In this document: positions 38,236 to 53,442 of the stretch, in pieces | How the letters are laid out: every line of letters starts with the position of its first letter | Numbering within the stretch: the first letter of the stretch is position 1 | NCBI RefSeq assembly: GCF_003151135.1 | Contig: NZ_QEQK01000012.1 | Location: 1-64,000, forward strand | Length of the DNA: 64,000 nt | Origin: Abyssibacter profundi | GTDB lineage: Bacteria > Pseudomonadota > Gammaproteobacteria > Nevskiales > OUC007 | Direction: 5' to 3' | Program-made: the position numbers and the translations under genes | Notes under the pieces: generated by a model | The model's input: only the letters and a program-made list of their open reading frames with translations | Told to the model about the DNA's origin: nothing | Databases searched by the model: none

Positions 38236-39420
38236 CTAAAGCGGCCGACTACGCCCCCGGCGCCCGAGGTACAACAGGCCGATCAGGGCGACCAAGCTCA
38301 GCAGGTTCAAAGCGCCGCCGCCGCTATCGACAGCCGAACCCGCGTCGCTCGGCGCGTCGTCAGGATTGGCCGGCGGCTCACCGGCTGCCTGCACGAGCAC
38401 CACACCCCGCCCGCTGGGCGCCGGGGCCCAGATGTCGCCCGGCCCCTGGTTGGAGACCACCCGCCCGGCAACGCCCGGACAACCGCGCTCAAAGTCGCTG
38501 GGGTTGCCGCGCTGCTCGGGCGTGGTCCCCGTTCCCAGGTCATCGATCGCAGCGCGCAGGATGTCAGGATTGTTGGTGAAAATGCCGTCGATGCCGTAGC
38601 CCAGCAGCGTGTCCATGGTCTGGCGGTCGTTGACGGTATAGGTGTGCACGTCATGACCATTGGCATGGAAGCGATCGATGACCGCAGGGTCCGCGAGAAT
38701 GTTGGCGTTGTTGGGCGAGAACGCATCCATGTAAGCGTCGCCGGTGCCACTCGTCTGAATGGACAGATTGCGTAGGTTGGTCGGCGCGCCGTACAGGTAC
38801 ACGGTGGGCAGTGTGGGCGCCAAGGCTTTGATGCGCTCCAGGCTTGCCGGGTCGAAGCTCTGCATCAGCACGCTGCTGTCGGCCACTCGGCCTCCGCCGG
38901 TGTCGATCAAACCCTTGCGCGTCAGTAACTCGGTGAGCACCTCTTCGGCCCGGCCGCCGGCCGAATCCTTGGTCTCGACGTGAAAGCGCATTAAGGGATT
39001 GATACGCAGGTAGCAGTCGAGCTGCTCCTCGAAGGGCACGATCTTGGCGCCCACAAAGGCGTCATCAGCCTGGGTGGGGTTCCGGGTGTTGAACCAGGAG
39101 CCGAAGTCCATCTCCCGAAGCTCGGCCAGGGTGTAGTCCGACACCGCGCCACTGGCGTCCGACGTGCGGTCTACCGTGGTGTCATGGATGCACACGGGGA
39201 CCTCGTCGGCCGATAGCAGGACATCGCACTCCAGCATGTCCGCATCCATCTCGATGGCCAGATCGTAGGCAAAAAACGTGTGCTCCGGCGCGTAGGCCGA
39301 GGCGCCGCGGTGGGCGATGTTGAGCTGAGGCCCATTGGGGCCGGACACCTGGGCCGCGGCCGGAGGGACGATGACGGCAATGGCCATGACCAGCAGGCCG
39401 CGCAAAGTGTTGGAGAGCAT
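38236..39420 (-). CDS. Exported glycerophosphodiester phosphodiesterase with GlyGly-CTERM-like tail
   Basis: Protein of 394 aa. A signal peptide (LLVMAIAVIVPPAAA) is followed by the GDPD TIM-barrel: NIAHRGASAYAPEHTF with the catalytic His and Arg, LECDVLLSADEVPVCIHD with metal-binding acidic residues and second His, and FHVETKDSAGG. It hydrolyses glycerophosphodiesters to glycerol-3-phosphate and an alcohol. The last 35 residues (DSGGGALNLL, hydrophobic helix, GRRGRSRPL) have the form of a GlyGly-CTERM sorting signal. ATG 39420 is at the signal peptide; a longer frame extends to 39468. Confidence 0.88.
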   Translation of the reverse strand: MLSNTLRGLLVMAIAVIVPPAAAQVSGPNGPQLNIAHRGASAYAPEHTFFAYDLAIEMDADMLECDVLLSADEVPVCIHDTTVDRTSDASGAVSDYTLAELREMDFGSWFNTRNPTQADDAFVGAKIVPFEEQLDCYLRINPLMRFHVETKDSAGGRAEEVLTELLTRKGLIDTGGGRVADSSVLMQSFDPASLERIKALAPTLPTVYLYGAPTNLRNLSIQTSGTGDAYMDAFSPNNANILADPAVIDRFHANGHDVHTYTVNDRQTMDTLLGYGIDGIFTNNPDILRAAIDDLGTGTTPEQRGNPSDFERGCPGVAGRVVSNQGPGDIWAPAPSGRGVVLVQAAGEPPANPDDAPSDAGSAVDSGGGALNLLSLVALIGLLYLGRRGRSRPL

Positions 39421-39481
39421 GTGAACGGTGCAGGATGCGAACGAAGCGCCGCATTCTTGCCCAGTCACATCATTGTTTGAT

Positions 39482-39519
39482 GACAGTGGCCGGCGATGTC
39501 ATCGGCGCCGGCCACTGTC
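39482..39519 (-). terminator. Strong hairpin after the DUF6351-type gene
   Basis: A perfect 14-bp stem (GACAGTGGCCGGCG / CGCCGGCCACTGTC) with a 10-nt loop lies 20 nt past the stop of the minus-strand hydrolase gene and before the GDPD gene. It lacks a clear U run, but its strength and place fit a transcript end. Confidence 0.6.
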
Positions 39520-39539
39520 GGGTTTCGCCGGGTCTGACG

Positions 39540-41837
39540 CTACCGCAGACCGTAGTCGAATGCGGCCGCCTGCATGCCTGCGCCCGAGTTGGCTGGCGGC
39601 GGTGGCAGCGGCTCGCCACCGACGATCATGCGGCCGTTGTCGTCCACATAGCGCAGCCAGGCGACCGTCGGCTGCTTGGCCCGGCCGGGTGCGCGGTAGT
39701 CGCAAACGCCATCGGGGAAGGCCGTGGCCAGCTGGGCCCACTGCTCATCGGTGAACGGCACCAGCCCGTAGTCATCATTGCGATCCAGCGGCTTGAGCTG
39801 GCAGTCGAAGTTGTCTGCCGTGCGGGTGTCGCCCGCGACGGTGCGCGGCGTACCGTAGGCGTAGAGCGGGCGCAGCAGGTCAATGCAGACCTCACCCAAT
39901 ACCGGCTCACCCCCCACAATCGCGCATTGATCCTGCACATCGCCCGGCCGGTTACGAGAGATCTTGTCGGCCAGCGGTGTGTCGCTGCTGTCGGCCTCGA
40001 CCTGCGCCAGCCACGCGTCCATGGCATCCAGCCCACGGTAGACATACTCGAGATCCCCGAGCAGCGGGACCGGGCCACCCCACATCACATGGTTGCGGGC
40101 GCTGCCGTGCTCGCGCTCGATGCGCCAGCGGATCCACCACGCATGCAGCGCATCGTGTGCAATCCCCGGATCGGGTCCGACGAAGGTCAGAATCGGCACC
40201 GTATCCAGATTGTTGGTCATATTGATCATGCCGCTGCGATACGCATTCCCCACGGCCGGGTGATCGGCCCGGGTGCGGGCGGCCTGCGGCTGGATATCGA
40301 CATCCAGCCCACCGATCTTGACGTTCAGATCAACAAACATCGCCGGTGTGATGAGCCCGGCGCGCAGGGCGTTGAGGCCGTACTGCACCCCGGTGTTACC
40401 CAACGGAATACCGGTGAACCCAAAGCCGACCTGCTGCTCGATTTCCGACCAGACTTCGGGACCGCGCTGCCCGAGAATATGCGGCATCCACTCCAGAATC
40501 CCGCAGCGCTGCCCGGTCGGGTTGGTCTCGGGGTCGTAGCTGGCATCCCCGGCGCAGTTGCCGGTGGTCTGGGTCGCCGCCTTGAACAAACCCTCATCGG
40601 CGACCACGGCGTTCACATGCGTCAAATGCCCTTCCACCGGCCCCCACAGCAACGGGTTCCAGACCACCCCTGGCGCCCAGCGACTGGGGTCTTCGAAGTA
40701 CTTGCGCATCAGATGCAGGTCGGCAAATTGCAGCCCGGCCGACAGCGAGTCCGGATACGCGCACATGGTCAGCAGGCCCTGATACAGCCCCGGGTAGGCG
40801 TTGGCGATGGTCAGCTGGGCAATCGAGCCCCCCGAGCAACCCGTGCCAATGGCATAGCGCAGCGGGCCGTACTGCTCCACAAAGCGCTCCTTGGCCATCA
40901 TGATCGATTCGGCCGCCAGGGCCACATCGCAGTTGTGCCCGGTATTGGCCAGCGCCGTCGATAGCACGGCATAGCCCTGCCCCAAGGCATAGATGTAGCT
41001 GGGCTCGATGAGCGGGATATCGCCGAAAGTGCCCGAGTAATCATCCAACGGTGCATTACCCGGCGTGTACTTGGCCCCGCAGTTGCCACCATGGGTGATC
41101 AACATCTTGCCGTTCCACTGCGGTTGCGGTGCCCAGGGCTCCCAAGGCGCCTCCGGGTTGAACAGCGTCAGGATCTTGTACTGGTCGCGATCCTGGTAAC
41201 CCAGCTCCTGGCGCACGATGAAGGGCACGGTCTCGCCATTCTGTGTGGTGGTCATGGCCACATCATCTGGCGGATTGTCGGGATCGTAGGGCAGCAGGTC
41301 GGTGCCCAGCGACACCCCGGGGATCGGCTCCAGCACATCGACCAGGGCCGTGGGGCGGTAGAGGTAGCTGTACTCGGCAGGCTGGTTACAGGCCAGGTCC
41401 ACCGCCCCGTCCTGACAGCGAATCCGCTTGATCTCGGGCCGGGAGAATATCGGCCCCTCATTGGGATAGTTGGTGATGGTCGTACTGGATTGAGCGCCGT
41501 TAAGCTCGACGACGAGGCGATTCTCACCAACCGTCAGCCCATCGATGCGCCCCATGACGCGGCCGTTATTCCGGCGCGCGAAATCGGTGCTGATGTCCTG
41601 CCCGTTCAGGGCAACCCGCAGGCCATCAACGGCCTCGTCACCCGGAACGGCGATCTCCATGAGCGCATCGCCACCACTGATCATGTCGGCGCGGTTGGAC
41701 AGCACCAGGACCGACAGACCCTCGCCCCCTGCCTCGACCGGCTCGGTCACCGACGGCGCACTGCCACTGCAGGCCGTCATCAGCAGCCACACGGCCACCA
41801 GTCCGCCACGCAGGGCGGTCGTGGGAATCCCCAACAT
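39540..41837 (-). CDS. DUF6351-type/tannase-like alpha/beta hydrolase lipoprotein
   Basis: Protein of 765 aa. A lipobox LMTAC is near residue 23. A beta-rich N-terminal part (SVLVLSNRADMISGGDALMEIAVPGDEA) precedes an alpha/beta-hydrolase region with the probable nucleophile elbow IGTGCSGGSIAQL and oxyanion region LITHGGNCGAKY. Many cysteines suggest an extracytoplasmic fold. The overall plan resembles the DUF6351 family, which I recall as tannase/feruloyl-esterase-like; the substrate is unknown. GAGGAG lies 7 nt upstream of ATG 41837. It is monocistronic, ending before a strong hairpin. Confidence 0.65.
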   Translation of the reverse strand: MLGIPTTALRGGLVAVWLLMTACSGSAPSVTEPVEAGGEGLSVLVLSNRADMISGGDALMEIAVPGDEAVDGLRVALNGQDISTDFARRNNGRVMGRIDGLTVGENRLVVELNGAQSSTTITNYPNEGPIFSRPEIKRIRCQDGAVDLACNQPAEYSYLYRPTALVDVLEPIPGVSLGTDLLPYDPDNPPDDVAMTTTQNGETVPFIVRQELGYQDRDQYKILTLFNPEAPWEPWAPQPQWNGKMLITHGGNCGAKYTPGNAPLDDYSGTFGDIPLIEPSYIYALGQGYAVLSTALANTGHNCDVALAAESIMMAKERFVEQYGPLRYAIGTGCSGGSIAQLTIANAYPGLYQGLLTMCAYPDSLSAGLQFADLHLMRKYFEDPSRWAPGVVWNPLLWGPVEGHLTHVNAVVADEGLFKAATQTTGNCAGDASYDPETNPTGQRCGILEWMPHILGQRGPEVWSEIEQQVGFGFTGIPLGNTGVQYGLNALRAGLITPAMFVDLNVKIGGLDVDIQPQAARTRADHPAVGNAYRSGMINMTNNLDTVPILTFVGPDPGIAHDALHAWWIRWRIEREHGSARNHVMWGGPVPLLGDLEYVYRGLDAMDAWLAQVEADSSDTPLADKISRNRPGDVQDQCAIVGGEPVLGEVCIDLLRPLYAYGTPRTVAGDTRTADNFDCQLKPLDRNDDYGLVPFTDEQWAQLATAFPDGVCDYRAPGRAKQPTVAWLRYVDDNGRMIVGGEPLPPPPANSGAGMQAAAFDYGLR

Positions 41838-42005
41838 GATCAATCTCCTCGTTGCACCCGGCCGCTTGGTCGCAGCTCGTTCGTGGCGTCGGGATCATGG
41901 CCCGACGCATGTAACGCCTAGTGTACGCCGCAGGCACCCCGGGGGGATTGTCACCAGCGGGACGTTGGTACCACCCGTCAGGTCAACGTGATGAGCCGGA
42001 GGGGT

Positions 42006-44225
42006 TCAGGGCCGGGCTGGCAGGGCACTCATCTGGGTGGGCGGCAGCGTCGCCTCGAACTCGCCAACGTGGTAGCGGTGGCACTGGGTGCAGTCGTCAC
42101 CGGCCCGATCAGGCTGGTGACATTCCAGGCACACGGCCTGCTCAAGCGGCTGGAAATTGCTCGCAAAGTCATGGGGGTTGAGCGTTTCGAAGCTTTCGGC
42201 GTAAGCCGCGTCCGGCGCCACCTCATGGCAGGTTCGGCAGCCGGCGTCACCCAGCAGGCTGAAATGCGCCGCATGATCGAACTCGGTGAACTGGCGCAGC
42301 TGGGCCGACACCTGCCGCGGCTGCCATTGCACTTGCCGCGGCGCCTCGGGGCCATCGCGTTCCACGCTGTGGCACTGCAGACACATGCCGGGCTGGCGCG
42401 GGTCCATCCAGTCACCGCCAGCCTGACCTGCAGCCAGGTCGGTCCAGGCACGCAGCACGGGGTCGGCATGACCTGCCGGGCGGTAGCGCAAGACGAAATC
42501 ATCCAGGTACCAGCCGCCCAGCGCCATGCGCTCTTCGGGACTCAGGCCGGGCTCGGATTCCGGCTCGGGCGTCGGCTCCGGCTCGGCGAAGGGATCGATA
42601 TCGTCACCCCCGGCAAACAGATCGCCGCCAAACAGGTCTTCGTCGGCGCCTGCATCGTCTGCAAACAGGTCGCCGAGCGACTCGTCATCATCCCCGCCAC
42701 CAAACAAGGCATCGAAGTCATCCAGCCCGTCGTCATCTGACGTGGCCTCGGGCGTATCGGCGGGCTCCGGGCGCAGTGCCGTGGTCGCTGGTGGCTCGCC
42801 GCCCTGATGGGCGGCGACCTCACTGGCCAAATCCGGGAACCACCGCTGCTGGGCGGCATCGATGAGCCCGATGGGTAGCAGACCCGATAGGCGGCGTTGC
42901 GCGGTGGTGTCCAGCGGCGCCTGTTGGCTGGCCTCGAGTCGTTCGATGAACTCGGCGCTACCGCGTTGCTGCAGGTCGTGAATCAGGTGTTTGAAGTGCC
43001 AGGCCAGCTCGGAGGCGGCATCACGCTGGGAGGCTGTCGCAGACTCCAGGTCCAGCAGATCGACGTCTTCGAGTCTTGCCTGCAGCTCAGCGTAGTTCGG
43101 AACAGCCGCCAGCAGCCATTGGTTCATCGGCGGCAGCTCTCCGTCGGCAAAGGCCGGCCACTGGCCGATCTGCTCGACCAGGGTCAGATCGAAACCAGGC
43201 ACGGCGAGTACCGCCAACCCGCGTGCCCCGGCCTGGGAATCACCCGCAATATCGCCCGCGTGGCAGTCGCCGCAGCTGGTGTCGAATGCGCGCACGCGCA
43301 TCGTGCGACCGTCTTCCGCGGGGACATGGCAACCCGAGCAACTGGCCGGTGCGGCCTCGGCCTCATCGGCAAAGTGCTTGCCCAGATGTGAGGCATGATC
43401 GAAGACGATGCGGGTTCGCCGGTCATAGGGATAATCACTGAACTCGGGGTGGCCGTCACCAAAATGCGGAAACCGCTGGCTGTGACAGACCTGGCATTGA
43501 CCGGCTTCGACAGCCGTTAGGTCAGCCGTCGCGCCCTGGTGTTCCTGATGACAGGCACCGCAGGCAATCGGGGCATCGGGCGTACCCCAGATTGCGCGGT
43601 TCAATTCCACAGACCAGGGGCCCAGGCGATCGCCAGGCTCGCCCACCGGCAGCGCCGTGAGTCCGTGGGGGGCCTGCGGTGTCTCGCCGAGGTCATGGCA
43701 ATTCAGACAGGCATGTTCACCGCCCACCGGCATATCGGCGCCGCCGTTCCACGCCGCCTGCAGCCAACCGCCAGCCTCATCGCCTGCCGTCGTGTGGCAA
43801 TCGCTGCAGGCCTGCACGGTCGAATGGGCCGCACTGAGGTGGCCGGGTTCAACCAGTTCGCCCGCCCACTGTCCGGCCAGACCCAGCAAGACCAGTCCCA
43901 ACGCTGCAACCGCTGTTGAGCGCACCAGGAGCTTGCGTCGGTACTTCCAGCTACGACGTGGTCGACACGGTGGCTCCTGCTGGCAGCACCGGCCATCCGC
44001 AGCCGGGCCGCCGGCACAGGGCCCACCTTGCAACGGCCCCCGCGTACAGCGCCACCGGTCACCATCACGCACGGGCTGACACTGAGGTCCGGCGCCGCAA
44101 TGGCCCCGGGCGTCCGGCCCAGCATGACAACAGCTGCCGTCTGCCTGACGCCCGCACACCCAATGTTGATTGGGGCGGTGGTAAGGACTGGCCGCGTAAT
44201 CGAAGGGCTGCAAGCGCTCAGTCAT
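42006..44225 (-). CDS. Membrane-anchored decaheme cytochrome c with cytoplasmic Cys-rich domain
   Basis: Protein of 739 aa. Residues 20-90 hold ten cysteines in a twofold repeat of form C-x2-GP-x-A-x-G-x-C-x(5-6)-C-x-P. A basic stretch (RRSWKYRRKLL) and a single helix (about 101-119) follow, so the Cys-rich part should face the cytoplasm. The periplasmic part has CXXCH sites at C140, 173, 222, 244, 296 and 318, a long segment without hemes, an acidic Gly/Asp/Phe-rich linker (about 495-560), and CXXCH at C615, 663, 699 and 712. That gives ten c-type hemes. It is last in the seven-gene operon, 2 nt after the cytochrome b-like gene. It could carry electrons across or along the membrane. Confidence 0.85.
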   Translation of the reverse strand: MTERLQPFDYAASPYHRPNQHWVCGRQADGSCCHAGPDARGHCGAGPQCQPVRDGDRWRCTRGPLQGGPCAGGPAADGRCCQQEPPCRPRRSWKYRRKLLVRSTAVAALGLVLLGLAGQWAGELVEPGHLSAAHSTVQACSDCHTTAGDEAGGWLQAAWNGGADMPVGGEHACLNCHDLGETPQAPHGLTALPVGEPGDRLGPWSVELNRAIWGTPDAPIACGACHQEHQGATADLTAVEAGQCQVCHSQRFPHFGDGHPEFSDYPYDRRTRIVFDHASHLGKHFADEAEAAPASCSGCHVPAEDGRTMRVRAFDTSCGDCHAGDIAGDSQAGARGLAVLAVPGFDLTLVEQIGQWPAFADGELPPMNQWLLAAVPNYAELQARLEDVDLLDLESATASQRDAASELAWHFKHLIHDLQQRGSAEFIERLEASQQAPLDTTAQRRLSGLLPIGLIDAAQQRWFPDLASEVAAHQGGEPPATTALRPEPADTPEATSDDDGLDDFDALFGGGDDDESLGDLFADDAGADEDLFGGDLFAGGDDIDPFAEPEPTPEPESEPGLSPEERMALGGWYLDDFVLRYRPAGHADPVLRAWTDLAAGQAGGDWMDPRQPGMCLQCHSVERDGPEAPRQVQWQPRQVSAQLRQFTEFDHAAHFSLLGDAGCRTCHEVAPDAAYAESFETLNPHDFASNFQPLEQAVCLECHQPDRAGDDCTQCHRYHVGEFEATLPPTQMSALPARP

Positions 44226-44227
44226 GC

Positions 44228-45043
44228 CTACAGGCCTCCAAAGGCATGGGCCGAGATGAGGTGCACCACGGCCAGCACTAGCATCGCTGCAGTCAGCGGG
44301 ACATGGACAAAAAGCCAGCCCTTGAGCAAGCCCTGAACCGTGTAATGCATATCCAGATCCGACTTCTGCCTGCACAAGGCCGCCAGCTCTCTGGCAAAAG
44401 GCTTTTCGGCTTCGGAGAGGTAGCGTTCCAGCGCGATGAGCCGGCCATGATGTCGTGTTACATGATCACCGTGACCCAGCGAGCGCCAGCGCCACCGCGG
44501 CGCCGTGAACAGCCCCGCCAGATGCTGGCGATAGTGTTCGCCCAGCAGCGTTGAATCGGTCTCGCTGGCCGCCTGCACGACCAGGGCCTCAGCCCGTTTG
44601 CGCAGCGTGGCGGCATGTTGCGGAATGCGCTCGAAGATCAGTTCCTCATCGGTCTGGTTCAGTCGGCGCGGCAAGCTGCGCGACCAGTACAGCCCCAGCA
44701 AGCCGCTACCCGCCGTGAGTACGAACAGCCACCACAGCAGCCACTCCAGCACGGCGTCCGGCCAAGACAGACCGGTATGCGCCGCAAAGATCACGATGGC
44801 CAGCGCGCCCGTATAGGCGTGCAACTGCAGCCAGACAGCAGCCCGACCGATGGGCAGCATGCTCAGCCGCTTGCGCTGGCTGTACAACGACAACAGCAGG
44901 ATGGCGATGAACAGCAGCCACCCCGTCCAGAGGTCCGCGGCTAGCAGGCCGGCATCCAGGGCCAGGAACAACAGCCAGCCCAGACCGGCCACGATCGCCC
45001 ACGCCAGCAGATTCCGGCGCCGCCGCAGCGCAAATGGGGTCAT
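44228..45043 (-). CDS. Di-heme b-type membrane cytochrome
   Basis: Protein of 271 aa with five likely helices (about 13-29, 39-55, 70-90, 99-119, 243-266). Helix 3 carries His75 and His89 and helix 5 His247 and His261, each pair 14 residues apart. This is the geometry used by cytochrome b to hold two stacked hemes between helices. A soluble, charged segment of about 120 aa sits between helices 4 and 5. It is probably the membrane electron carrier between the cytoplasmic Fe-S protein and the periplasmic hemes. The start overlaps the preceding stop by 4 nt (ATGA). An in-frame ATG at 45055 is an alternative. Confidence 0.75.
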   Translation of the reverse strand: MTPFALRRRRNLLAWAIVAGLGWLLFLALDAGLLAADLWTGWLLFIAILLLSLYSQRKRLSMLPIGRAAVWLQLHAYTGALAIVIFAAHTGLSWPDAVLEWLLWWLFVLTAGSGLLGLYWSRSLPRRLNQTDEELIFERIPQHAATLRKRAEALVVQAASETDSTLLGEHYRQHLAGLFTAPRWRWRSLGHGDHVTRHHGRLIALERYLSEAEKPFARELAALCRQKSDLDMHYTVQGLLKGWLFVHVPLTAAMLVLAVVHLISAHAFGGL

Positions 45044-47214
45044 CGATGCAGCCATTCGATCAGGTTAGGCAGATCCCGCATGTCCACACGTTCCAGCGCA
45101 TCGTGCGGACAGGCCCGCTGGCAGGCCGGTCCGCCAGGCTGGTCGATGCAGAGGTCGCACTTGGTGGCTTTCTGGACTGGCGCGCCAGTGGCGTCGTTGT
45201 GGACGAAGTCCCCGGACTGATTACGCACCTCGACCATGCGGATGTTGTTGTACGGACAGGAGTTTGCGCAGGTGGCGCAGCCGATGCAGGTGTCGTCGTT
45301 GATCACGACCTGCCCCTCTTCCGAGGCGCGATGAATCGCCCCGGTCGGGCAGCCAATCATGCAGACCGGGTCGGCGCAGTGCATGCAGGCATTGGCAATC
45401 ATCAGTCCATCGTGACGCGGCCCGTGACGGTTGAAGCGGGGGTTGTTCTGATGCCCGACGGCGCAGGCCTCGGTACATGCATCGCAACGCACGCAGCGAT
45501 CCAGATTGATCAGCATGGCGGCGCGCCCGTTGATCAGGTGCCGATCCACCAGCATCTCGACCAAGGCCTCATCGTCCTGCGCGCTCTGCACATCCAGGGG
45601 ACGCAGGGCCTCGTCGATTCCGGCAGACGCGCCGAGCACATCGGCCTGCTCCTGGCGCAGGGCATCCAGCTGCGCCGCGCTCAAGCCTGGTAGCACATGC
45701 TCTTCGATCACCTGGGTGGGCACACGCAACACGTCTGCATAGCCCACGGCCCGCAGGGTGTGATGGTGTGTTCTGGGCTGTCCGTTGTCGTCGGCCAGCA
45801 ACGCGTCCAACCCAAACACGGCACCGCGGCCCAGGTAGTTGATCGTCTGCTGTCCGTGATGCAGGGGCCGCGTGACCCGAGCGAACCCGGAGCGAATCAG
45901 CAACAGGCCATCGGGATAGTCCCCGGCGCGCACGATCTCGGGCTCGGCCTTCATGCGCGCCGCATCGGGTTGCTCGGCCATGCGCTGGTAACTGGTGTGC
46001 CAGTCGAATTCGCCGTAGCTCTCGAACAGGGTTTGACTTGCGATGTCGTTCATCGCTGCGTCGTCCAAATGCGCAAATAGCGGCGTGGCGCGTAGATGCG
46101 TAATCAGACTGTTCTTGCGATACAAATCTTCGACATGCCGACGAAACGCCTCATCCCGCTTGCGTAGATCCCGCAGGCCCTGCCAGCGAATTTCCAGCAG
46201 GATGGCGTCGTCTTCAGCAAACACGGTCGCGGTGCGCTGCGTCCGCCCCAGGGCGGCGATCTCGCCAAACACTTCGCCACTGGCCAACACCGCCGACTGG
46301 GTGTGATCGAGTACCGCAGGAATGTCCTGCACAAAGGTGTGGGGCGCCGCTGCACCCGCCCGTTCTTCGACCACGGTGGCACTCCACGACGCGCTGCCGT
46401 CATCGGCGCTGAGCAACCGGGTGCTCAACATGGACTGCTCATCAACCTCGCCCTCACCGATGAACCGCAGATCGCAGGTCCCCAGGCGAAGTGTGGCCTG
46501 CCCCGCCAGCACCTGACGCTCGATGCGCACGCCGTCGATGAAGGTGCCGTTGGAGCTCCCCAGATCAACCAGCTCCCAACCCAGTTCGGTCGGCACCAGT
46601 CGGGCATGGCGAGCCGACACGGCGGCGTCGCTGAGCACGACGTCATTCTCGGCATCTCGACCAATACTCAGGCCGCTTTCCGGAACTGCATCGAGCAAGA
46701 TTTCACGTTCGGATTCGCTCGACGACCCGGTCATGACCAGGCGCGCCGCTGACGGCGTCGACGCAGGCGCCTCGGGCACGTAGCGCGACACATCGCGAAC
46801 CTCAGGCTGGCGTGGATTCCGCCATAGCTGCGCCACCGCCTGCATCCAGTTCTTACGTTGCGGCTCCGCCCGACCCAGCGTGGCTTCGGGCAGACCTGGC
46901 GGCAGGATGACCCGCACCCGCCCCTGCACAATCAAGAAGGCCGAATTTCCGTAGTCCCCGGCGCGGACAATGATCTCTCCGCGCGTGACCCGTCGCAGCC
47001 GAGTGTCGTTGCGGACGATGCTCTCCAGCGTCACCGGTGGCCGGAATCGCGACGGGTCCATCTGGGCGAACGGCGGCATCGAGAGTATGCGCGCCACATC
47101 GCGCTCGCTCATGGCGTCACCGAACGGCTGTGACCAGCGCTGCGGTGGCGGAATGCTGGACGGCGCCGCCGAGGTGGCGGCTCGCAGATCTCGGGTCAGG
47201 ATGGACTCGGCCAT
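45040..47214 (-). CDS. Cyclic-nucleotide-binding/FHA/4Fe-4S ferredoxin fusion protein
   Basis: Protein of 724 aa with no signal peptide. Residues 68-106 are the first half of a cyclic-nucleotide-binding fold (RGEIIVRAGDYGNSAFLIVQG); 157-255 form an FHA domain (IGRDAENDVVL, SARHARL, DLGSSNGTFIDG); 310-365 supply the missing second half (GEVFGEIAALGRTQRTATV). A second cNMP-like domain covers about 373-510 but lacks the usual Gly-Glu/Arg signature. Residues 566-705 are a DmsB/NrfC-type ferredoxin with four cysteine groups (CVRCDACTEAC; CMHCADPVCMIGC; CIGCATCANSC; CDLC...CQRAC), enough for four 4Fe-4S clusters. It is likely a cytoplasmic electron carrier controlled by a cyclic nucleotide and a phospho-protein. 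Confidence 0.85.
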   Translation of the reverse strand: MAESILTRDLRAATSAAPSSIPPPQRWSQPFGDAMSERDVARILSMPPFAQMDPSRFRPPVTLESIVRNDTRLRRVTRGEIIVRAGDYGNSAFLIVQGRVRVILPPGLPEATLGRAEPQRKNWMQAVAQLWRNPRQPEVRDVSRYVPEAPASTPSAARLVMTGSSSESEREILLDAVPESGLSIGRDAENDVVLSDAAVSARHARLVPTELGWELVDLGSSNGTFIDGVRIERQVLAGQATLRLGTCDLRFIGEGEVDEQSMLSTRLLSADDGSASWSATVVEERAGAAAPHTFVQDIPAVLDHTQSAVLASGEVFGEIAALGRTQRTATVFAEDDAILLEIRWQGLRDLRKRDEAFRRHVEDLYRKNSLITHLRATPLFAHLDDAAMNDIASQTLFESYGEFDWHTSYQRMAEQPDAARMKAEPEIVRAGDYPDGLLLIRSGFARVTRPLHHGQQTINYLGRGAVFGLDALLADDNGQPRTHHHTLRAVGYADVLRVPTQVIEEHVLPGLSAAQLDALRQEQADVLGASAGIDEALRPLDVQSAQDDEALVEMLVDRHLINGRAAMLINLDRCVRCDACTEACAVGHQNNPRFNRHGPRHDGLMIANACMHCADPVCMIGCPTGAIHRASEEGQVVINDDTCIGCATCANSCPYNNIRMVEVRNQSGDFVHNDATGAPVQKATKCDLCIDQPGGPACQRACPHDALERVDMRDLPNLIEWLHR

Positions 47215-47226
47215 GACGTCGTCCGA

Positions 47227-48243
47227 TTAAGGCGCGTAGACCTTGCCCTTGTAGGCACCGGCCGCGGGCAACAAGCCATCCAATGCGGCCAGCTCGCTGC
47301 CGTCATAACCGTTGGCGATGGCTTTGGCCTGCTCGGCCACCCGGTCAGCGGCGGCGGTCAGGGCGGCCTCGTTGTTGAGCGACACCTTGGCCGACCCGGC
47401 AATCTTCAGCAGGGCGGCCACTTCGGGAATCGCGACACCGGCGTCCGAGATGGCCTTGATGCGCAGCGCCGACCGCTTGGCGCGCTTCGCCATCTCGACC
47501 GCATATTTGGCTTTTGCCGTCGCCTTGGCGACTCCGCGCAGGGCGTACTCCAGGTCCAGCGCTTGGCCCACCAGGAACATCAGCCGCTTACGATTCTGGC
47601 TCGCTTCCGCATTGCTGCCGGCGTCGTTGTACCAGACGTTGTGGCGCACTTCGCCCTGGCTCCAGGCCACCAGTTCGAAGTTGCTGCCAGCCGGGTGACC
47701 ACCGGTATTGACCAGGTCTTCCTTGGGCACGGTATGGCACTGGTAGCAGTTCTCGGCCAAGGCGTAGAGATCGCCCGGTCGAATCATGCCCGCGGCTTCG
47801 GACTGGGTCCAACGCGCCTTGCGATGTGCCTCGGATTCGTTTTCGGCCGTTGCATCCTTGCCACCGAAGTCGCTGTGCACTTCGATCCAGTCCTTGCCGG
47901 CCCCATGGCAGGACTCGCAGGTAATGCCGCCGATGGTTTCGGGCTTGCCTTCATCCAGCTTGGACGTGAAATGGCAGGACACACACTCGCCCTCGGCCTT
48001 GATGCGCTTAATGCCCATCTTGTCGGCAATGCTGCGTGCCTCGTCGGTTCGCGGCATGTTCTTGAACGTGGAGAAGTGATGCGTATCGCGCCAGGCGGCG
48101 ATCGAGGCCTCGTGGCAGTCACCGCATGCCGTCGGCCCGACGACCTTGGCCGGGTCTAGCCGCAGCTCTTGCGCCGTAGCGGTGGAGGCCCCAAGCACGG
48201 TGGCTGCGACCAGGGTGAATGCGGCAAGAATGTGGCGTGTCAT
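47227..48243 (-). CDS. Tetraheme cytochrome c, c554-type
   Basis: Protein of 338 aa. A signal peptide (FTLVAATVLGASTATAQ) precedes four CXXCH sites: C40 (CGDCH), C87 (CVSCH), C109 (CESCH) and C166 (CYQCH). The spacing and the HHFSTFKNMP and CHGAGKDWIEVHSD segments resemble the cytochrome c554 family, periplasmic electron carriers first known from hydroxylamine oxidation. No hydroxylamine oxidoreductase gene is in the window, so ammonia oxidation is not implied. The C-terminal third is Ala/Lys-rich and helical. It lies 12 nt upstream of the Fe-S fusion gene in the same operon. Confidence 0.88.
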   Translation of the reverse strand: MTRHILAAFTLVAATVLGASTATAQELRLDPAKVVGPTACGDCHEASIAAWRDTHHFSTFKNMPRTDEARSIADKMGIKRIKAEGECVSCHFTSKLDEGKPETIGGITCESCHGAGKDWIEVHSDFGGKDATAENESEAHRKARWTQSEAAGMIRPGDLYALAENCYQCHTVPKEDLVNTGGHPAGSNFELVAWSQGEVRHNVWYNDAGSNAEASQNRKRLMFLVGQALDLEYALRGVAKATAKAKYAVEMAKRAKRSALRIKAISDAGVAIPEVAALLKIAGSAKVSLNNEAALTAAADRVAEQAKAIANGYDGSELAALDGLLPAAGAYKGKVYAP

Positions 48244-48288
48244 GGTGCAGGCCTCCAATGGCGGTCAATCGGTCTTCGGAAAAATGAA

Positions 48289-49560
48289 TCAGGCATCCAG
48301 CACGAGGTTGGACGTGGGTCGGGCAATACAGGGCAGACAAGAACCGGCCTCTGGCTCCGCTGAGGGTGGGCTGGCGTAGTCGACCTCACCTGAGCGAACG
48401 GCGGTGACGCAGGTCCCGCAGTTGCCCGCCCGGCAGCCGGAGTCGATGACGACATCGTTGTCCTCGGCCAGCTCCAGCAGGGTTTCAGCGCCACTCCAGT
48501 TCACGGTCTTGCCGGAGTGGGCGAATTCGACGGTCACCGCCGGCACGTCGCTGGCAGGCTTGGATTCTGTCTTCTTGATGGAAGCAGGTCCGAAGGCTTC
48601 CATGCGGATGTCCGCCTTGGGCACGCCCCAGTCAGCCAGGTCCTGTGTCACAGCGGCCATCATCGGCGGCGGACCGCAGATGTAGAACACATAGTTGTTC
48701 GACGGCAGCATCTGCTTGAACAAATCGACGCCCACCCAGCCGTGGTGGTGGTAGGTCTCGCCCAGCACATCGCCTTCGGTCGGCTCGCTGTAGCAAAGAC
48801 AAACCCGCAGGTTGTCGTGGGCGGCTTCCAGCGCCTTGAGATCATCCTGGTAGATCTGATCGGCACCGAACCGTGCACCACTGAAGAACCAGATCTCCTG
48901 ATCATAGCCAGCCGCACACGCGGCCTTGAGCATGCTGAACACCGGCGTGATGCCGACACCGCCGCCAATCAACACCACCGGTCTACGTTCTTCCAAATCC
49001 AGGAAGAAATCTCCAGCCGGTGCTTTTACATCCAGAATTTCACCTTCGCTGACTTCCCGATGGAGGAAGTTGGACGAGAGCCCGGGCGGAGCGTCGGGCG
49101 CCTTCGGCGGCGGATCCAGACGTTTAACCGAAATCCGGTAGTGCCCGGTTTCGCTGGGGCTGTCCGACAAGGAGTAGCAACGAACCAGTGGCTTGGCCCG
49201 ATCCGGCAGCTTGAGCTGAAAGGTCAGAAACTGCCCGGGCTTGAACGGCGGCAAGGCCTTGCCGTCATGCGGTATGAGATAAAACGAGGTGACCGAATCA
49301 CTCTCGGGCACCTTGCGCTCGATACGAAATTTACGTGTACCGCTCCACCCTGCGTCGACAGCACGAACAGCCGAGCGGTGACGCACGGCGGCGGTGGCCA
49401 GTTCCAGATCTAACTGTTGCAGCCGCTGATCGTGGTAGCGACGCGCCATGGCCGCATCGCTCCGGGCACGCAGCAGCACCGTGGCCAGGTGGAGCAGCGC
49501 CCCGATCACCAGGACGGCGCCCAGCAGTTGCACGGTCATCGGAGCCACGAGCCAGTCCAT
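48289..49560 (-). CDS. Membrane-anchored FAD/2Fe-2S oxidoreductase (NqrF/Hcr-like)
   Basis: Protein of 423 aa. A helix at about 8-30 anchors it. A ferredoxin-reductase FAD domain has RCYSLSDSPSE near 127-137. The NAD(P)-binding domain has IGGGVGITPVFSML near 198 and YICGPPPMM near 293. The C-terminal plant-type 2Fe-2S domain has ligands C376, C381, C384 and C408 or C411 (CRAGNCGTC...CLPC). The domain order matches hybrid-cluster-protein reductases and NqrF. It would take electrons from NADH or NADPH in the cytoplasm and pass them to the 4Fe-4S protein or the membrane cytochrome. Its start overlaps the barrel gene stop by one base. Confidence 0.9.
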   Translation of the reverse strand: MDWLVAPMTVQLLGAVLVIGALLHLATVLLRARSDAAMARRYHDQRLQQLDLELATAAVRHRSAVRAVDAGWSGTRKFRIERKVPESDSVTSFYLIPHDGKALPPFKPGQFLTFQLKLPDRAKPLVRCYSLSDSPSETGHYRISVKRLDPPPKAPDAPPGLSSNFLHREVSEGEILDVKAPAGDFFLDLEERRPVVLIGGGVGITPVFSMLKAACAAGYDQEIWFFSGARFGADQIYQDDLKALEAAHDNLRVCLCYSEPTEGDVLGETYHHHGWVGVDLFKQMLPSNNYVFYICGPPPMMAAVTQDLADWGVPKADIRMEAFGPASIKKTESKPASDVPAVTVEFAHSGKTVNWSGAETLLELAEDNDVVIDSGCRAGNCGTCVTAVRSGEVDYASPPSAEPEAGSCLPCIARPTSNLVLDA

Positions 49561-51008
49561 TAGAGCTTCACCACGAGTTCGGCACGTAGGCCTTGTTGAT
49601 CCGGCCCGGTGTCCGCAGCCCCGAGGAACCCGCCGAACTGAAGCAGAACCCGTCGACCCACGGCCTGCTGCAGGCGGAAGGAAATCGCGCTGGCGTCGTT
49701 GTCCGACACCGTGTGCTGACCGCGGCGCCCGGTCTCAACAATGAGCTGTGTGCGATTGCGGTTCCAGAACATCTGGTAACCCAGGGCCACCCCCCAGGCA
49801 TCGTCCGTACGATTACCCAGCGGGGCCGGGAATGCGCCGATCCCTCGTGCAGCAAAGGTGATGCCTGTTCGGCCCAGTGGCCCGCCGGCCAGGGGGTCGC
49901 GGGCCGCGGAGGAAAAGTTGTCCTGACCGTAGAAGGCGTTGGCGTACAGCAGGTTGTGCGTGTGATATGGCGTGATCGACCACTCCGTGAAGAACAACTG
50001 GCCATCATCGGACGAAGCCAACCCAGTTCCGTCACTGCCGATATCGTTGGAGAACAGGAAGCGGAACGTGGTGTTCACTAGACCCAGACGCTGTACCGCG
50101 CTGATGCCGCCGGCGATCAGGTCGCCACGGCCCTGGCTGCCATCGACCAATGCCAAGTCCAGATCCACAGTCGTGGAAAATTGGTTGCCAAACACCGTGT
50201 CCCACTGCGTGAACAAGGCGTAGAGCCGGGCACCGTCGTCCGGTGCGTTGTCGTCACGATCGATCTCGTCCCAGGCGTACAGCACCGTGACACGCAGGTT
50301 GTTCAGCCAATCCATGCTCGGAAAGCGTAGATTGTTTCGGGTCAGGCCAATGGCATCCAGGCGATCATTGATCAGAAACCCGTCCTGGAAGGTGATCTGC
50401 TGGCGGCCGACGGAAAACCCGATGTCCAGGTCGTGTCGGTCCGTGGGATCCAGCGCGGGAAACAGTTCACCGAAATCCCCTTCAAAGAACAGGGTGGTGA
50501 TGTCGGCGTTCGTGTGATCTTCGAAGGGGTCCTGGCGATCCGGGTCGTACTGCCAGCCGGTGAACTGCGCGCCATCATTCAACGGCCGGATGCCGATGAG
50601 TACTCGCTCGCTACCGGAGAGTTGCAGGTTGCCGAACAGGTCCAGCCGGCTGACCAATTCGCTGCGTCCGGTGCCGAGATCGTTATCAAAGCTCTGCAGG
50701 GCCGAGCGGAACGTGCCATAGACCCAGAACTGAGGCTGCCATACCGCCCCACCCGGCAGGAGCACGCCGTGGGGAATATTGCCAGGCCCGAGAAACTTAC
50801 CGCCCAGCTCCACGATCGGCGGCGTCAGTTTGGGCAGCTCGTCATCGCCCAGATAAGGACCGGGCTCGTCGGAGAAACGGCTGGCGTCGCCGGCCGCCCC
50901 TGCCACGCCGCTGCCGGCGAGCATCAACCCCACAGCGACAGCTCGACAGAGCGCCCAACCGCTGCGCCCCAAACGACCTTGCTGCGTCAATCTGTGCAAC
51001 GGCTGCAT
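49560..51008 (-). CDS. Outer-membrane beta-barrel protein of the cytochrome operon
   Basis: Protein of 482 aa. The signal peptide ends GSGVAGAAG. The rest is alternating amphipathic strands (LVSRLDLFGNLQLSGSERVLIGIRPL, LDIGFSVGRQQITFQDGFLINDR, FSTTVDLDLALVD) with Asp-rich turns. It looks like an alginate-export-type or porin barrel of about 16-18 strands and ends in ...RAELVVKL. Its start and stop each share one base with the neighbouring genes (TAATG). Its place beside multiheme cytochromes suggests a substrate pore or a cytochrome conduit like MtrB, but no MtrB-specific motif is seen. Confidence 0.75.
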   Translation of the reverse strand: MQPLHRLTQQGRLGRSGWALCRAVAVGLMLAGSGVAGAAGDASRFSDEPGPYLGDDELPKLTPPIVELGGKFLGPGNIPHGVLLPGGAVWQPQFWVYGTFRSALQSFDNDLGTGRSELVSRLDLFGNLQLSGSERVLIGIRPLNDGAQFTGWQYDPDRQDPFEDHTNADITTLFFEGDFGELFPALDPTDRHDLDIGFSVGRQQITFQDGFLINDRLDAIGLTRNNLRFPSMDWLNNLRVTVLYAWDEIDRDDNAPDDGARLYALFTQWDTVFGNQFSTTVDLDLALVDGSQGRGDLIAGGISAVQRLGLVNTTFRFLFSNDIGSDGTGLASSDDGQLFFTEWSITPYHTHNLLYANAFYGQDNFSSAARDPLAGGPLGRTGITFAARGIGAFPAPLGNRTDDAWGVALGYQMFWNRNRTQLIVETGRRGQHTVSDNDASAISFRLQQAVGRRVLLQFGGFLGAADTGPDQQGLRAELVVKL

Positions 51009-52975
51009 TACTGCACCTCCGTTTGCGCGACGTTTGCGCCGCCGATAGTCGTTTTGCGCGCCCAGATCACTTCATGCCCGGCGACCACCCCGTCCGCGAC
51101 ATCACGTGGACTCATGCCGTAATCGAAGCCCACGTGCTGGATCTCGGCAATGAGGTTGACCGGCACCATCGCCGCCTTGAGCTCCACCTCGACGCTGTAA
51201 GGACCCTTGCCGTTAAGCGGTGCCCGGTACTTGGCGGTTCGCGTCGCACCCGGCGACAGCACCTGGCGATGTTTGCGTGCGCCGGCCGGCTGGCCCGTCA
51301 GAATCGTGGAAGACGTGCTCGGACGGATGAACGGCAGTGCATCGACCGAGTAGTTCACCGTGAGCACCTGCTCGCGTTCGCCGCCACGCACGTTGCGGGT
51401 TACAAAGCGCGACTGCATGTTGAACAGCTGCTTGTCGAGCGGCAGGTCACCGTTGTGCACATAGATCGAATGTGAATCGCGCACATCGCCATTGGGGTCC
51501 AGGTCACCCGACTCCATCAGCACCTGGCCACCGGCATCGCGGACCACCACGTGCAGCCAGATCACCCGCTCGGCATCGAAGCCGGTGGGGACGCTATGAC
51601 CATCCATGATGTTCTTGACGTCGACGGCGAATCGAAGCTGCTCGGCGGTTTGCCGCGTCACCTCGATCTCACCCAGGCCGAAGCCGTTGCGCAGCACCTC
51701 GAGACGCTTCTCCCGCGCCCAGGCCAGGCGCTCGAACTGGTCATCGAGTATGGCCCTGGCGTCGTAGCGATCATCGATGGCGCGCCATCGCTCAGGAAAC
51801 TCGTAGTCATCGGAGACGGTGTCTTCGAAGGCGTCCGTGCCCCAGCCAGCCTCATGATCAAATAACAGCCAGTCCCGCGGGGTGGCCAGCTTGGTGGCCT
51901 CGATGTTGTGCGGGAAAATTCCGGGGTGAACGATGGAGTAATCCGGCCCTGCGAAGAAATGATTCGTCAGCTTTCTCGGCGGCGTGGTCTCACTGCCAAT
52001 CTGGGCGGCTGGCCCAACCTCGTAACCCGCATCTTTGCCCTGGACCTTCCCCATATGGCAGTCCTGGCAGCTCACACCGTTCTCCGCCGCCGGTGACTGT
52101 TTGTAGTCCGAGAACGCTTCTTCCAGGCGAAATCCGTTGAACAGATTGACGTCGTGGCAAACGCCACAGAAGCCGGATTCACCGATGTATTCGAAGCTGC
52201 GAACCTCGCCGTGAATCTTGCGACCCGATTTGTCTGGATCGGGCGTCAGCGTGCCGCCAGAACTATCGATGGTGGCCTGAAGCACCTCACCATCCGTCGG
52301 CCCATAAACCGGCGCGGTCAAATCACCCGTCTCCAACGCGACGCGCCCGCTCACCTTGCCGTAAGGCTGGCTCAGACGATGGCAGACCACGCAGGTAATC
52401 CCCTCGCTGGAGGCCGGGTGCCGGTCCAGGTTGGAGATGAACGGCGACTCACCCTTGTTCATCCCAACCTGGGTATGACAGCGGATGCAGAAATCGCCAT
52501 TGGTGCTGCTGGTTTGTGCGTTGATCGTGCGCTGCATCGCCATGTACACCGGCGAAATCTGCGCATAGGCGTGCTGGGACACCGCCCATTGTTCGTACTG
52601 CCGTGGATGGCAGCTGCCACAGGTGTTGGCCGACGGGTATTCCGCCTCTTCGAACAGGGCTCGGTGGATCTCGTCGGCCGTCAGGCGATCATCATCCGCC
52701 GGGGAAACATCCGCAGCCTCCACGGCCTCGGTGGTCGCCGCAGCTGGAGGTTCGCCAGACAACAAGTCACCGTCGAGCAATCCGCCGGAGTCATCGAGCA
52801 AATCGTCACCGCCGTCCAGCAATCCACCGGAATCCCCCAGCAGATCACCGTCCGAAGCTGCCTCGCTTTCCTCCAGCAGCCCGCCCTCGAGCAGCCCCCC
52901 ATCAAGCAGGTCATCCTGCGCCCAAGCCACACAGGTCACCAACCAGCAGGCGGCGATCAGTCCCGTCCGGATCAT
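51008..52975 (-). CDS. Pentaheme cytochrome c with acidic repeat N-terminus
   Basis: Protein of 655 aa. A signal peptide (LIAACWLVTCVAWAQ) is followed at 21-75 by an imperfect repeat of Leu-Leu-Asp/Gly units (LLDGGLLEGGLLEES, DLLDDSGGLLDGDLLSG). CXXCH sites begin at C119 (CGSCH), C163 (CIRCH), C195 (CVVCH), then CGVCH and CQDCH further on. The first half resembles cytochrome c554-type multiheme proteins. The second half is heme-free and beta-rich (VNIMDGHSVPTGFDAERVIWLHVVVRDAGG), perhaps a docking or substrate domain. It is the first gene of the operon. Confidence 0.85.
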   Translation of the reverse strand: MIRTGLIAACWLVTCVAWAQDDLLDGGLLEGGLLEESEAASDGDLLGDSGGLLDGGDDLLDDSGGLLDGDLLSGEPPAAATTEAVEAADVSPADDDRLTADEIHRALFEEAEYPSANTCGSCHPRQYEQWAVSQHAYAQISPVYMAMQRTINAQTSSTNGDFCIRCHTQVGMNKGESPFISNLDRHPASSEGITCVVCHRLSQPYGKVSGRVALETGDLTAPVYGPTDGEVLQATIDSSGGTLTPDPDKSGRKIHGEVRSFEYIGESGFCGVCHDVNLFNGFRLEEAFSDYKQSPAAENGVSCQDCHMGKVQGKDAGYEVGPAAQIGSETTPPRKLTNHFFAGPDYSIVHPGIFPHNIEATKLATPRDWLLFDHEAGWGTDAFEDTVSDDYEFPERWRAIDDRYDARAILDDQFERLAWAREKRLEVLRNGFGLGEIEVTRQTAEQLRFAVDVKNIMDGHSVPTGFDAERVIWLHVVVRDAGGQVLMESGDLDPNGDVRDSHSIYVHNGDLPLDKQLFNMQSRFVTRNVRGGEREQVLTVNYSVDALPFIRPSTSSTILTGQPAGARKHRQVLSPGATRTAKYRAPLNGKGPYSVEVELKAAMVPVNLIAEIQHVGFDYGMSPRDVADGVVAGHEVIWARKTTIGGANVAQTEVQ

Positions 52976-53442
52976 CCCATTCACTCCCTTGACGCGATCC
53001 TGCCCGGCACGCACTCACGACCGGGTCGCGCTCGAGTATCTCGATCTCATTCCGACGGTAACTTGAATCTCTTCACAGTTTTGGCGTTGGGCGCCGGCGC
53101 AGCCTGTACAGCGCTTGATTTTTGCGCTTGAGGTGGAGATTACCCAGACGCAAGCAATCATAAGCTATTGAATATAAGAGGTATTCGTTTCAGCCCTCAG
53201 TGAATGGGAAATCTATCCCACATTGCTTGAGCGCCGCCCGCGACCGCGTATTTTCGTGAAAGTTCTGTGAAAAACGGGCAAATTGCGCAGAAATGATCTT
53301 TATGCGAACGAGAATGATTCTTTATTAGAATTTTGCCCGAATCGTCTGATGCGCAGTCCAGGCGTTACCATGTCGGCCCGCTCCGCCGCATCCCGGCGCA
53401 GCCAGTTGTCGCAGCTCGCCTAAAACACTGAACGAGATTGCC
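52976..53442. promoter_or_regulatory. Intergenic promoter region of the cytochrome operon and gmk
   Basis: About 470 nt between divergent transcription units. The middle and right part are clearly AT-richer than the surroundings (around 53110-53200 and 53260-53335), as expected for promoters. It includes a half-palindrome GAGAAT-GA-TTCTT near 53308 and a TGTGA half-site near 53269, neither complete enough to assign to Fur or Crp. No small gene is apparent. Confidence 0.45.

What the first reader, a model, noticed from the sequence alone, without database searches (positions are those of the whole stretch)
42006..52975. Seven-gene operon for a putative cytoplasm-to-periplasm electron conduit, apparently undescribed
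Seven minus-strand genes with overlaps (TAATG, ATGA) or gaps of 2-45 nt encode a pentaheme cytochrome, an outer-membrane barrel, an NAD(P)H:FAD/2Fe-2S reductase with a membrane anchor, a tetraheme c554-type cytochrome, a cNMP/FHA/4Fe-4S protein, a di-heme b membrane protein and a decaheme cytochrome. Together they contain 19 CXXCH sites, two probable b hemes, one 2Fe-2S and up to four 4Fe-4S clusters. The parts line up as NAD(P)H to FAD/2Fe-2S to 4Fe-4S to heme b to heme c, with a barrel that could be a pore or conduit. The terminal acceptor or donor is unknown. I know no named system with this composition.
Basis: partly seen in the sequence, partly recalled or inferred. Interest (0 to 1): 0.88.

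Follow-up and report, generated by a model that had tools for sequence, protein, structure and literature searches.

The report
PCC4-type trans-envelope electron-transfer operon
The seven genes are real and form a widely shared operon that probably passes electrons from NAD(P)H in the cell across the inner membrane to heme proteins in the envelope; it was already described in 2017 as the putative porin-cytochrome system "PCC4", although I found no experimental test of what it does.

Summary
Seven minus-strand genes lie at 42006-52975, with 5+4+10 CXXCH hemes, an OprD/AlgE-like barrel, an NAD(P)H:FAD/2Fe-2S reductase, a cNMP/FHA protein carrying 16 cluster cysteines, and a five-helix protein with two W-X3-H-X13-H motifs. 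"Apparently undescribed" does not hold. The set matches PCC4, subgroup II, of He et al. 2017 (PMC5566968): porin, cytochromes with 4, 5 and 10 hemes, a five-helix inner-membrane protein with exactly these motifs, a PF13247 Fe-S protein upstream of it, and a redox gene upstream of the tetraheme gene.

In 80 named genome loci, 42 hold all seven genes, 19 of them in this order. Hosts include Proteobacteria, Planctomycetota, Verrucomicrobiota, Nitrospinota, SAR324 and Lentisphaerota.

Apparently new here:
- an FHA domain inserted inside the first cNMP domain of the Fe-S protein;
- a cytoplasmic eight-cysteine domain on the decaheme protein, without a Pfam match;
- nucleotide cyclases enriched beside the operon;
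- a barrel of about 18 strands, against MtrB's 26;
- a related system sharing the inner-membrane module.

Best explanation: a regulated NAD(P)H-driven electron exporter. He et al. proposed inward flow to quinone. Direction, substrate and whether electrons reach the surface are untested.

The parts
51008..52975 (-). g1: pentaheme c-type cytochrome, C554-like heme part plus a C-terminal domain of about 300 aa; N-terminal hydrophobic segment fits a signal peptide; ATG at 52975
   Evidence: 5 CXXCH and hydrophobic segment; PF13435; 5 hemes in nearly all homologs
49560..51008 (-). g2: outer-membrane beta-barrel of about 18 strands, OprD/Occ/AlgE-like fold
   Evidence: AlphaFold model pLDDT 85; best match OccK7 Z 28.0, rmsd 2.8, 320 residues
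48289..49560 (-). g3: NAD(P)H:FAD/2Fe-2S reductase with an N-terminal membrane anchor (residues 1-34)
   Evidence: PF00970, PF00175, PF00111; flavohemoprotein reductase domain 2.4e-49; hydrophobic segment
47227..48243 (-). g4: tetraheme c554-type cytochrome; ATG at 48243
   Evidence: 4 CXXCH; PF13435 4.6e-14; four near-invariant candidate distal His
45040..47214 (-). g5: cNMP / FHA / cNMP / 4x4Fe-4S protein
   Evidence: PF00027, PF00498, PF13247 and other Fer4 models; 16 conserved Cys
46375..46797 (-). FHA domain inserted inside the first cNMP domain of g5 (about residues 140-280); this stretch is filled in only 7-8% of g5 homologs
   Evidence: occupancy 0.07-0.08 against 1.0 on both sides; PF00498 at 183-245
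45109..45495 (-). 16-Cys region of g5 for four 4Fe-4S clusters (residues 574-702)
   Evidence: each Cys conserved in 80-83 of 83 homologs
44228..45043 (-). g6: inner-membrane protein with five hydrophobic helices and two HX13H motifs (di-heme b by inference); ATG at 45043 overlaps the g5 stop
   Evidence: motifs; invariant His; model pLDDT 91
42006..44225 (-). g7: membrane-anchored decaheme c-type cytochrome; ATG at 44225, 2 nt after g6
   Evidence: 10 CXXCH and one hydrophobic segment; 10 hemes in nearly all complete homologs
43950..44186 (-). N-terminal domain of g7 before the membrane helix: duplicated four-Cys unit (8 Cys), cytoplasmic by inference
   Evidence: each Cys 0.98-1.00 conserved in 64 homologs; no Pfam match up to E 5

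Best explanation
The operon is a PCC4 (subgroup II) trans-envelope electron-transfer system. Shown by sequence: identity and conservation of the parts, heme counts, cluster and heme ligands, conserved gene order. Inferred: the membrane-anchored reductase g3 takes hydride from NAD(P)H onto FAD and its 2Fe-2S cluster. Electrons pass to the four 4Fe-4S clusters of g5, cross the inner membrane over the two b hemes of g6, and reach the membrane-anchored decaheme g7 and the soluble tetraheme g4 in the periplasm. They end on the pentaheme g1, which works with the barrel g2 at the outer membrane. The cNMP and FHA domains of g5 make the relay switchable by a cyclic nucleotide and by protein phosphorylation. 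Net flow is outward, from NAD(P)H to an unknown acceptor.
For: Composition, motifs and gene neighbourhood match PCC4 subgroup II. All seven genes are together in 42 of 80 loci and g5-g6-g7 in 74 of 80. The closest solved relatives of g3 are NAD(P)H-consuming reductases (flavohemoprotein, phthalate dioxygenase reductase, NqrF). The related system in L019-L031 keeps the g6 motifs but has a pyridine-nucleotide-disulfide flavoprotein fused to cNMP and 4Fe-4S domains, so a flavin/NAD(P) domain recurs at this step. g6 resembles transmembrane di-heme b folds (b6f Z 7.7, b561 Z 7.7, STEAP4 Z 6.9), weakly. Phosphate-binding Glu and Arg of the first cNMP domain are conserved (82/83 and 80/83), and class III nucleotide cyclases are enriched beside the operon (15 of 277 ORFs within 3 kb against 1 of 181 farther, Fisher p 0.003). 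The host genome (99.75% complete) has no RuBisCO hit. Established redox chemistry makes NAD(P)H-to-envelope flow downhill.
Against: Direction cannot be read from sequence. He et al. proposed inward flow from an extracellular donor to quinone, noting Fe(II)-oxidiser hosts. No acceptor is encoded nearby. The Z scores for g6 lie in the range that helical bundles reach without kinship. No complex was modelled, so contacts between parts are untested. No cyclase or kinase lies beside the window operon itself; the nearest cyclase in the window is about 24 kb away.
Confidence: 0.6

Rival explanations
1. Inward conduit, as He et al. 2017 proposed: an extracellular donor such as Fe(II) or Mn(II) gives electrons to the outer-membrane part, and they pass through the periplasmic cytochromes and g6 into the quinone pool.
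For: He et al. found PCC4 in marine Zetaproteobacterial iron oxidisers and in Hyphomicrobium from pyrite-oxidising and water-filter samples, and noted that g6-type proteins resemble quinone-active cytochrome b.
Against: It leaves the NAD(P)H reductase and the four cytoplasmic 4Fe-4S clusters of subgroup II without a role; moving electrons from Fe(II) to NAD(P)+ against the membrane potential would be steeply uphill. The host lacks RuBisCO. The system occurs in Planctomycetota, Verrucomicrobiota and alphaproteobacteria not known here as iron oxidisers.
Confidence: 0.2
2. Not extracellular electron transfer: a periplasmic reductase. g2 is a substrate channel that admits a small molecule, and g1 (or g4) reduces it in the periplasm with electrons from NAD(P)H.
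For: g2 models as an OprD/Occ/AlgE-type barrel of about 18 strands, a fold used for small-substrate channels, whereas MtrB has 26 strands to sheath a decaheme wire (PMC7198977). g1 resembles cytochrome c552 5ze8 and, weakly, C554 and multiheme nitrite/sulfite reductases.
Against: No catalytic heme was identified: g1 has six near-invariant candidate distal His for five hemes and g4 four for four, so all hemes could be bis-His. No conserved substrate-metabolism gene travels with the operon.
Confidence: 0.2

Closest known systems
PCC4 subgroup II (He, Barco, Emerson and Roden 2017, PMC5566968)
   Same: Porin; cytochromes with 4, 5 and 10 hemes; five-helix inner-membrane protein with two WX3HX13H and one SGXXG; PF13247 Fe-S protein upstream of it; redox gene upstream of the tetraheme gene; no extracellular multiheme protein; marine Gamma-/Alphaproteobacteria and Planctomycetes. 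Their remark that Fe-S and inner-membrane genes read as one gene in Oceanospirillum beijerinckii fits a single 858-aa ORF in O. sediminis (L106).
   Different: g5 of the window and its three closest relatives carries an FHA inside the first cNMP domain. The paper's main text does not mention cyclic-nucleotide, FHA or FAD domains (its supplement, which shows domain architectures, was not readable here).
PCC3 (same paper)
   Same: Porin, periplasmic multiheme cytochrome, inner-membrane protein with the same HX13H motifs.
   Different: PCC3 has an extracellular cytochrome with a median of 34 hemes and a periplasmic one with 21; the window has neither.
MtrCAB / MtoAB / PioAB
   Same: Outer-membrane barrel encoded with multiheme cytochromes.
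   Different: g1 and g7 score 32.6 and 19.9 bits against the 192.2 cut-off of the MtrA-like model TIGR03508; about 18 strands against 26 in MtrB; no extracellular decaheme MtrC.
Related system of the same order (L019-L031)
   Same: Inner-membrane protein with the same motifs, cNMP/4Fe-4S protein, decaheme protein with one membrane helix, neighbouring tetraheme c554.
   Different: Flavoprotein fused to the cNMP/4Fe-4S protein; FHA instead of the eight-Cys domain on the decaheme protein; different outer-membrane set with an HbpS-like protein. L023 combines this inner part with g1- and g2-like genes.
Ferric reductase / NOX / STEAP / cytochrome b561 membrane domains
   Same: Two b hemes held by paired histidines on helices, NAD(P)H-side to far-side electron transfer.
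   Different: No sequence match to Pfam; structural similarity is weak.

Membership tests
PCC4 (He et al. 2017) | Three multiheme cytochromes with 4, 5 and 10 heme motifs | tested here: met
   4, 5 and 10 CXXCH; same counts in homologs
PCC4 (He et al. 2017) | Porin gene in the cluster | tested here: met
   g2 models as an outer-membrane barrel
PCC4 (He et al. 2017) | Inner-membrane protein with five transmembrane helices | tested here: met
   Five hydrophobic helices in hydropathy and model
PCC4 (He et al. 2017) | Two WX3HX13H motifs and one SGXXG in that protein | tested here: met
   Present in g6 and in 66 of 66 homologs of at least 240 aa (loose [SAT]GXXG form counted in homologs)
PCC4 (He et al. 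2017) | No extracellular multiheme cytochrome in the cluster | tested here: met
   Only g1, g4 and g7 carry CXXCH in the operon; their cell location itself is inferred
PCC4 subgroup II | PF13247 Fe-S gene directly upstream of the inner-membrane protein gene | tested here: met
   g5 hits PF13247 with 40.4 bits, cut-off 26.2, directly upstream of g6
PCC4 subgroup II | Redox gene upstream of the tetraheme gene | tested here: met
   g3 precedes g4
PCC4 (He et al. 2017) | Direct sequence homology to the published reference genes (porin tree) | not tested
   The IMG reference sequences and the supplement were not at hand
PCC4 (He et al. 2017) | Exchanges electrons with an extracellular substrate | not testable with these tools
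   Needs experiment; not shown for any PCC4 in the papers read
PCC3 (He et al. 2017) | Extracellular and periplasmic cytochromes with very many hemes (median 34 and 21) | tested here: not met
   Largest count in the operon is 10
MtrAB / MtoAB / PioAB | MtrA-type decaheme cytochrome (TIGR03508 over cut-off) | tested here: not met
   32.6 and 19.9 bits, cut-off 192.2
MtrAB / MtoAB / PioAB | MtrB-type 26-strand barrel | tested here: inconclusive
   Model shows about 18 strands and OprD-like best matches, but a predicted model without partner is not proof

The most novel reading that the evidence does not exclude
PCC4 is not an iron-oxidation conduit but a cyclic-nucleotide- and phosphorylation-gated exporter of electrons from NAD(P)H, spread over several phyla. 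Its inner-membrane module (flavoprotein, cNMP/4Fe-4S protein, di-heme b protein, decaheme protein) is combined with different outer-membrane modules, and its narrow barrel of about 18 strands works differently from the MtrB sheath.
Probability: 0.3. Interest if true: 0.7.

Novelty: new member of a known kind. Interest (0 to 1): 0.42.

Why it matters
The system itself is known from one bioinformatic paper and I found no experiment on it. The additions make it testable: the NAD(P)H reductase and 4Fe-4S relay argue for outward flow, opposite to the published model; the cNMP and FHA domains together with neighbouring nucleotide cyclases suggest an electron conduit under second-messenger control; and the range now includes Verrucomicrobiota, Nitrospinota, SAR324, Lentisphaerota, Kiritimatiellota and Acidobacteriota (the last two as partial or incompletely sampled loci). 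If electrons reach the outside, many aerobic marine and soil bacteria not known for extracellular electron transfer would have the capacity.

Tried and rejected
Undescribed system: rejected after the literature match. Verrucomicrobial porin-cytochrome clusters of He et al. (PMC5615132): eight-heme periplasmic cytochromes and a barrel of at least 20 strands, a different composition. MtrAB-like and PCC3: see membership test. NapC/NrfH or alternative complex III: no supporting domain hits over cut-off. First paper searches with FHA, cNMP and heme words together found nothing. Plasmid copies of g5: none at 1e-40. Foldseek alone gave no significant match for g6 (best E 0.59); the VIA-align rows listed are a second look and weak. 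FRD/NOX chains did not appear among the listed rows, which excludes nothing. In a spread of 274 genomes of the class, the N-terminal part of g5 (with the FHA, without the clusters) was found only in the window genome and one other, so the system is patchy in the class. The g5 tree groups by phylum better than chance but with more changes than one origin per phylum needs; this does not prove transfer, since paralogues and mis-binned contigs can do the same.
Full report
What is there. Seven minus-strand ORFs fill 42006-53014. Hemes number 5 (g1), 4 (g4) and 10 (g7), 19 in all.

Conservation. A search of the order gave the same seven genes in the same order in two genomes of the same genus (G001, G002) and one of another family (G042). 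A scan of named genomes with the g5 alignment gave 80 loci; G001 corresponds to CALBOV010000247.1, an uncultured Salinisphaerales bacterium. Of these 80, 42 hold all seven genes, 19 in the window's order, 15 as g4-g5-g6-g7-g1-g2-g3, and the rest in other arrangements; g5-g6-g7 are present in 74. Some loci are cut by contig ends, so absences are not all real. Heme counts stay at 5, 4 and 10 almost throughout; a verrucomicrobial group has 3 in its more distant, oppositely oriented g4 relative.

Identity. He and colleagues (2017, PMC5566968) described PCC4: a porin, periplasmic cytochromes with 4, 5 and 10 hemes, a conserved inner-membrane protein with five helices, and other redox proteins. They gave two WX3HX13H motifs and one SGXXG for that protein. 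g6 has WLQLHAYTGALAIVIFAAH, SGLLG and WLFVHVPLTAAMLVLAVVH; in 57 aligned homologs both Trp and all four His are invariant. Their subgroup II has a PF13247 Fe-S gene upstream of the inner-membrane protein; g5 passes the PF13247 cut-off. They remark that in Oceanospirillum beijerinckii the two genes read as one; in O. sediminis (L106) I find one 858-aa ORF holding both. The match is by composition, motifs and order; I could not compare with their reference sequences. The window operon is therefore filed as PCC4, subgroup II.

Parts beyond the published text. (a) In g5 the stretch 141-280 is occupied in only 7-8% of homologs while both sides are occupied in all: an FHA domain sits inside the first cNMP domain. 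Separate FHA matches occur in g3 or g5 of a few other loci (L036, L039, L042, L048, L052), and FHA lies before the membrane helix of the decaheme protein in the related system, so FHA is a recurrent partner. (b) The first cNMP domain keeps its Glu and Arg (82/83 and 80/83); the second looks degenerate by eye. (c) g7 starts with a duplicated four-Cys unit, eight Cys conserved at 0.98-1.00 in 64 homologs, followed by Arg/Lys-rich sequence and the membrane helix; cytoplasmic location follows from the positive-inside rule and from hemes being attached on the far side. It has no Pfam match and no convincing solved relative. It could bind two 4Fe-4S clusters or zinc. (d) Class III cyclases (PF00211) make up 15 of 277 flanking ORFs within 3 kb and 1 of 181 farther out (Fisher one-sided p 0.003); Ser/Thr kinases 5 of 277 and 0 of 181. 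The distance cut was chosen after seeing the list, and several loci are related Planctomycetota, so the p value is indicative only. The window operon has no such neighbour.

Structures. g6 (pLDDT 91) has no significant Foldseek match; among rows aligned again, heme-b proteins appear (cytochrome b6f 7r0w Z 7.7, b561 4o7g Z 7.7 with rmsd 3.1 over 137, STEAP4 6hcy Z 6.9), in a range that helical bundles reach by shape alone. The heme-b reading rests mainly on the invariant histidines. g2 (pLDDT 85) is close to OprD/Occ channels (OccK7 4frt Z 28.0, rmsd 2.8, 320 residues) and to AlgE (Z about 25); I count about 18 strands. MtrB has 26 (PMC7198977). If g2 conducts, it can hardly sheath a decaheme wire as MtrB does; this is inference from size, not a modelled complex.

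Mechanism. Inferred relay: NAD(P)H, FAD and 2Fe-2S of g3, four 4Fe-4S of g5, two b hemes of g6, ten hemes of g7, g4, then g1 with g2. Outward flow is favoured by the reductase family of g3, by recurrence of another NAD(P)-type flavoprotein domain at this step in the related system, by energetics, and weakly by the lack of RuBisCO in the host. He et al. drew the reverse, donor to quinone. A third reading is a periplasmic reductase fed by a substrate channel. I give 0.6, 0.2 and 0.2.

Verdict. Observation confirmed, relay plausible, novelty claim not upheld: a new member of a little-known named kind, with new leads on regulation, direction and range.

Noticed in passing
L019-L031, for example L021:6032-19501: Related multiheme system in the same bacterial order: tetraheme c554, pyridine-nucleotide flavoprotein fused to cNMP and 4Fe-4S domains, five-helix HX13H protein, FHA-membrane helix-decaheme protein, HbpS-like protein, barrel, large multiheme protein. 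L023 joins its inner part to g1/g2-like genes.
   Followed up: partly
window 43950-44186: Duplicated four-Cys domain at the N-terminus of the decaheme protein, conserved in 64 homologs and without a Pfam match.
   Followed up: partly
L045, L053, L057, L066, L067, L070, L071, L102: Class III nucleotide cyclase genes within 400 nt of the PCC4 operon; one (L070) also has a weak FHA-like N-terminal match.
   Followed up: partly
L092, L094, L101, L104, L110, L111: Verrucomicrobial loci join g3-g5-g6-g7 to an HbpS-like protein, a protein of about 680-840 aa and (in L094, L101, L111) a large multiheme protein, not to g1/g2: an exchanged outer part.
   Followed up: partly
window 17605-18030: Class III nucleotide cyclase domain on the minus strand about 24 kb from the operon.
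   Followed up: no
L055 and L059; L090 and L099: Nearly identical g5 genes in records titled as different high-rank taxa (Kiritimatiellae and Gammaproteobacteria; Minwuia and Kordiimonadales): probably mislabelled or mis-binned.
   Followed up: no
window 38236-41843: Next genes downstream: a DUF6351 (tannase-like) protein and a glycerophosphodiester phosphodiesterase on the same strand, not shared with PCC4 loci.
   Followed up: no
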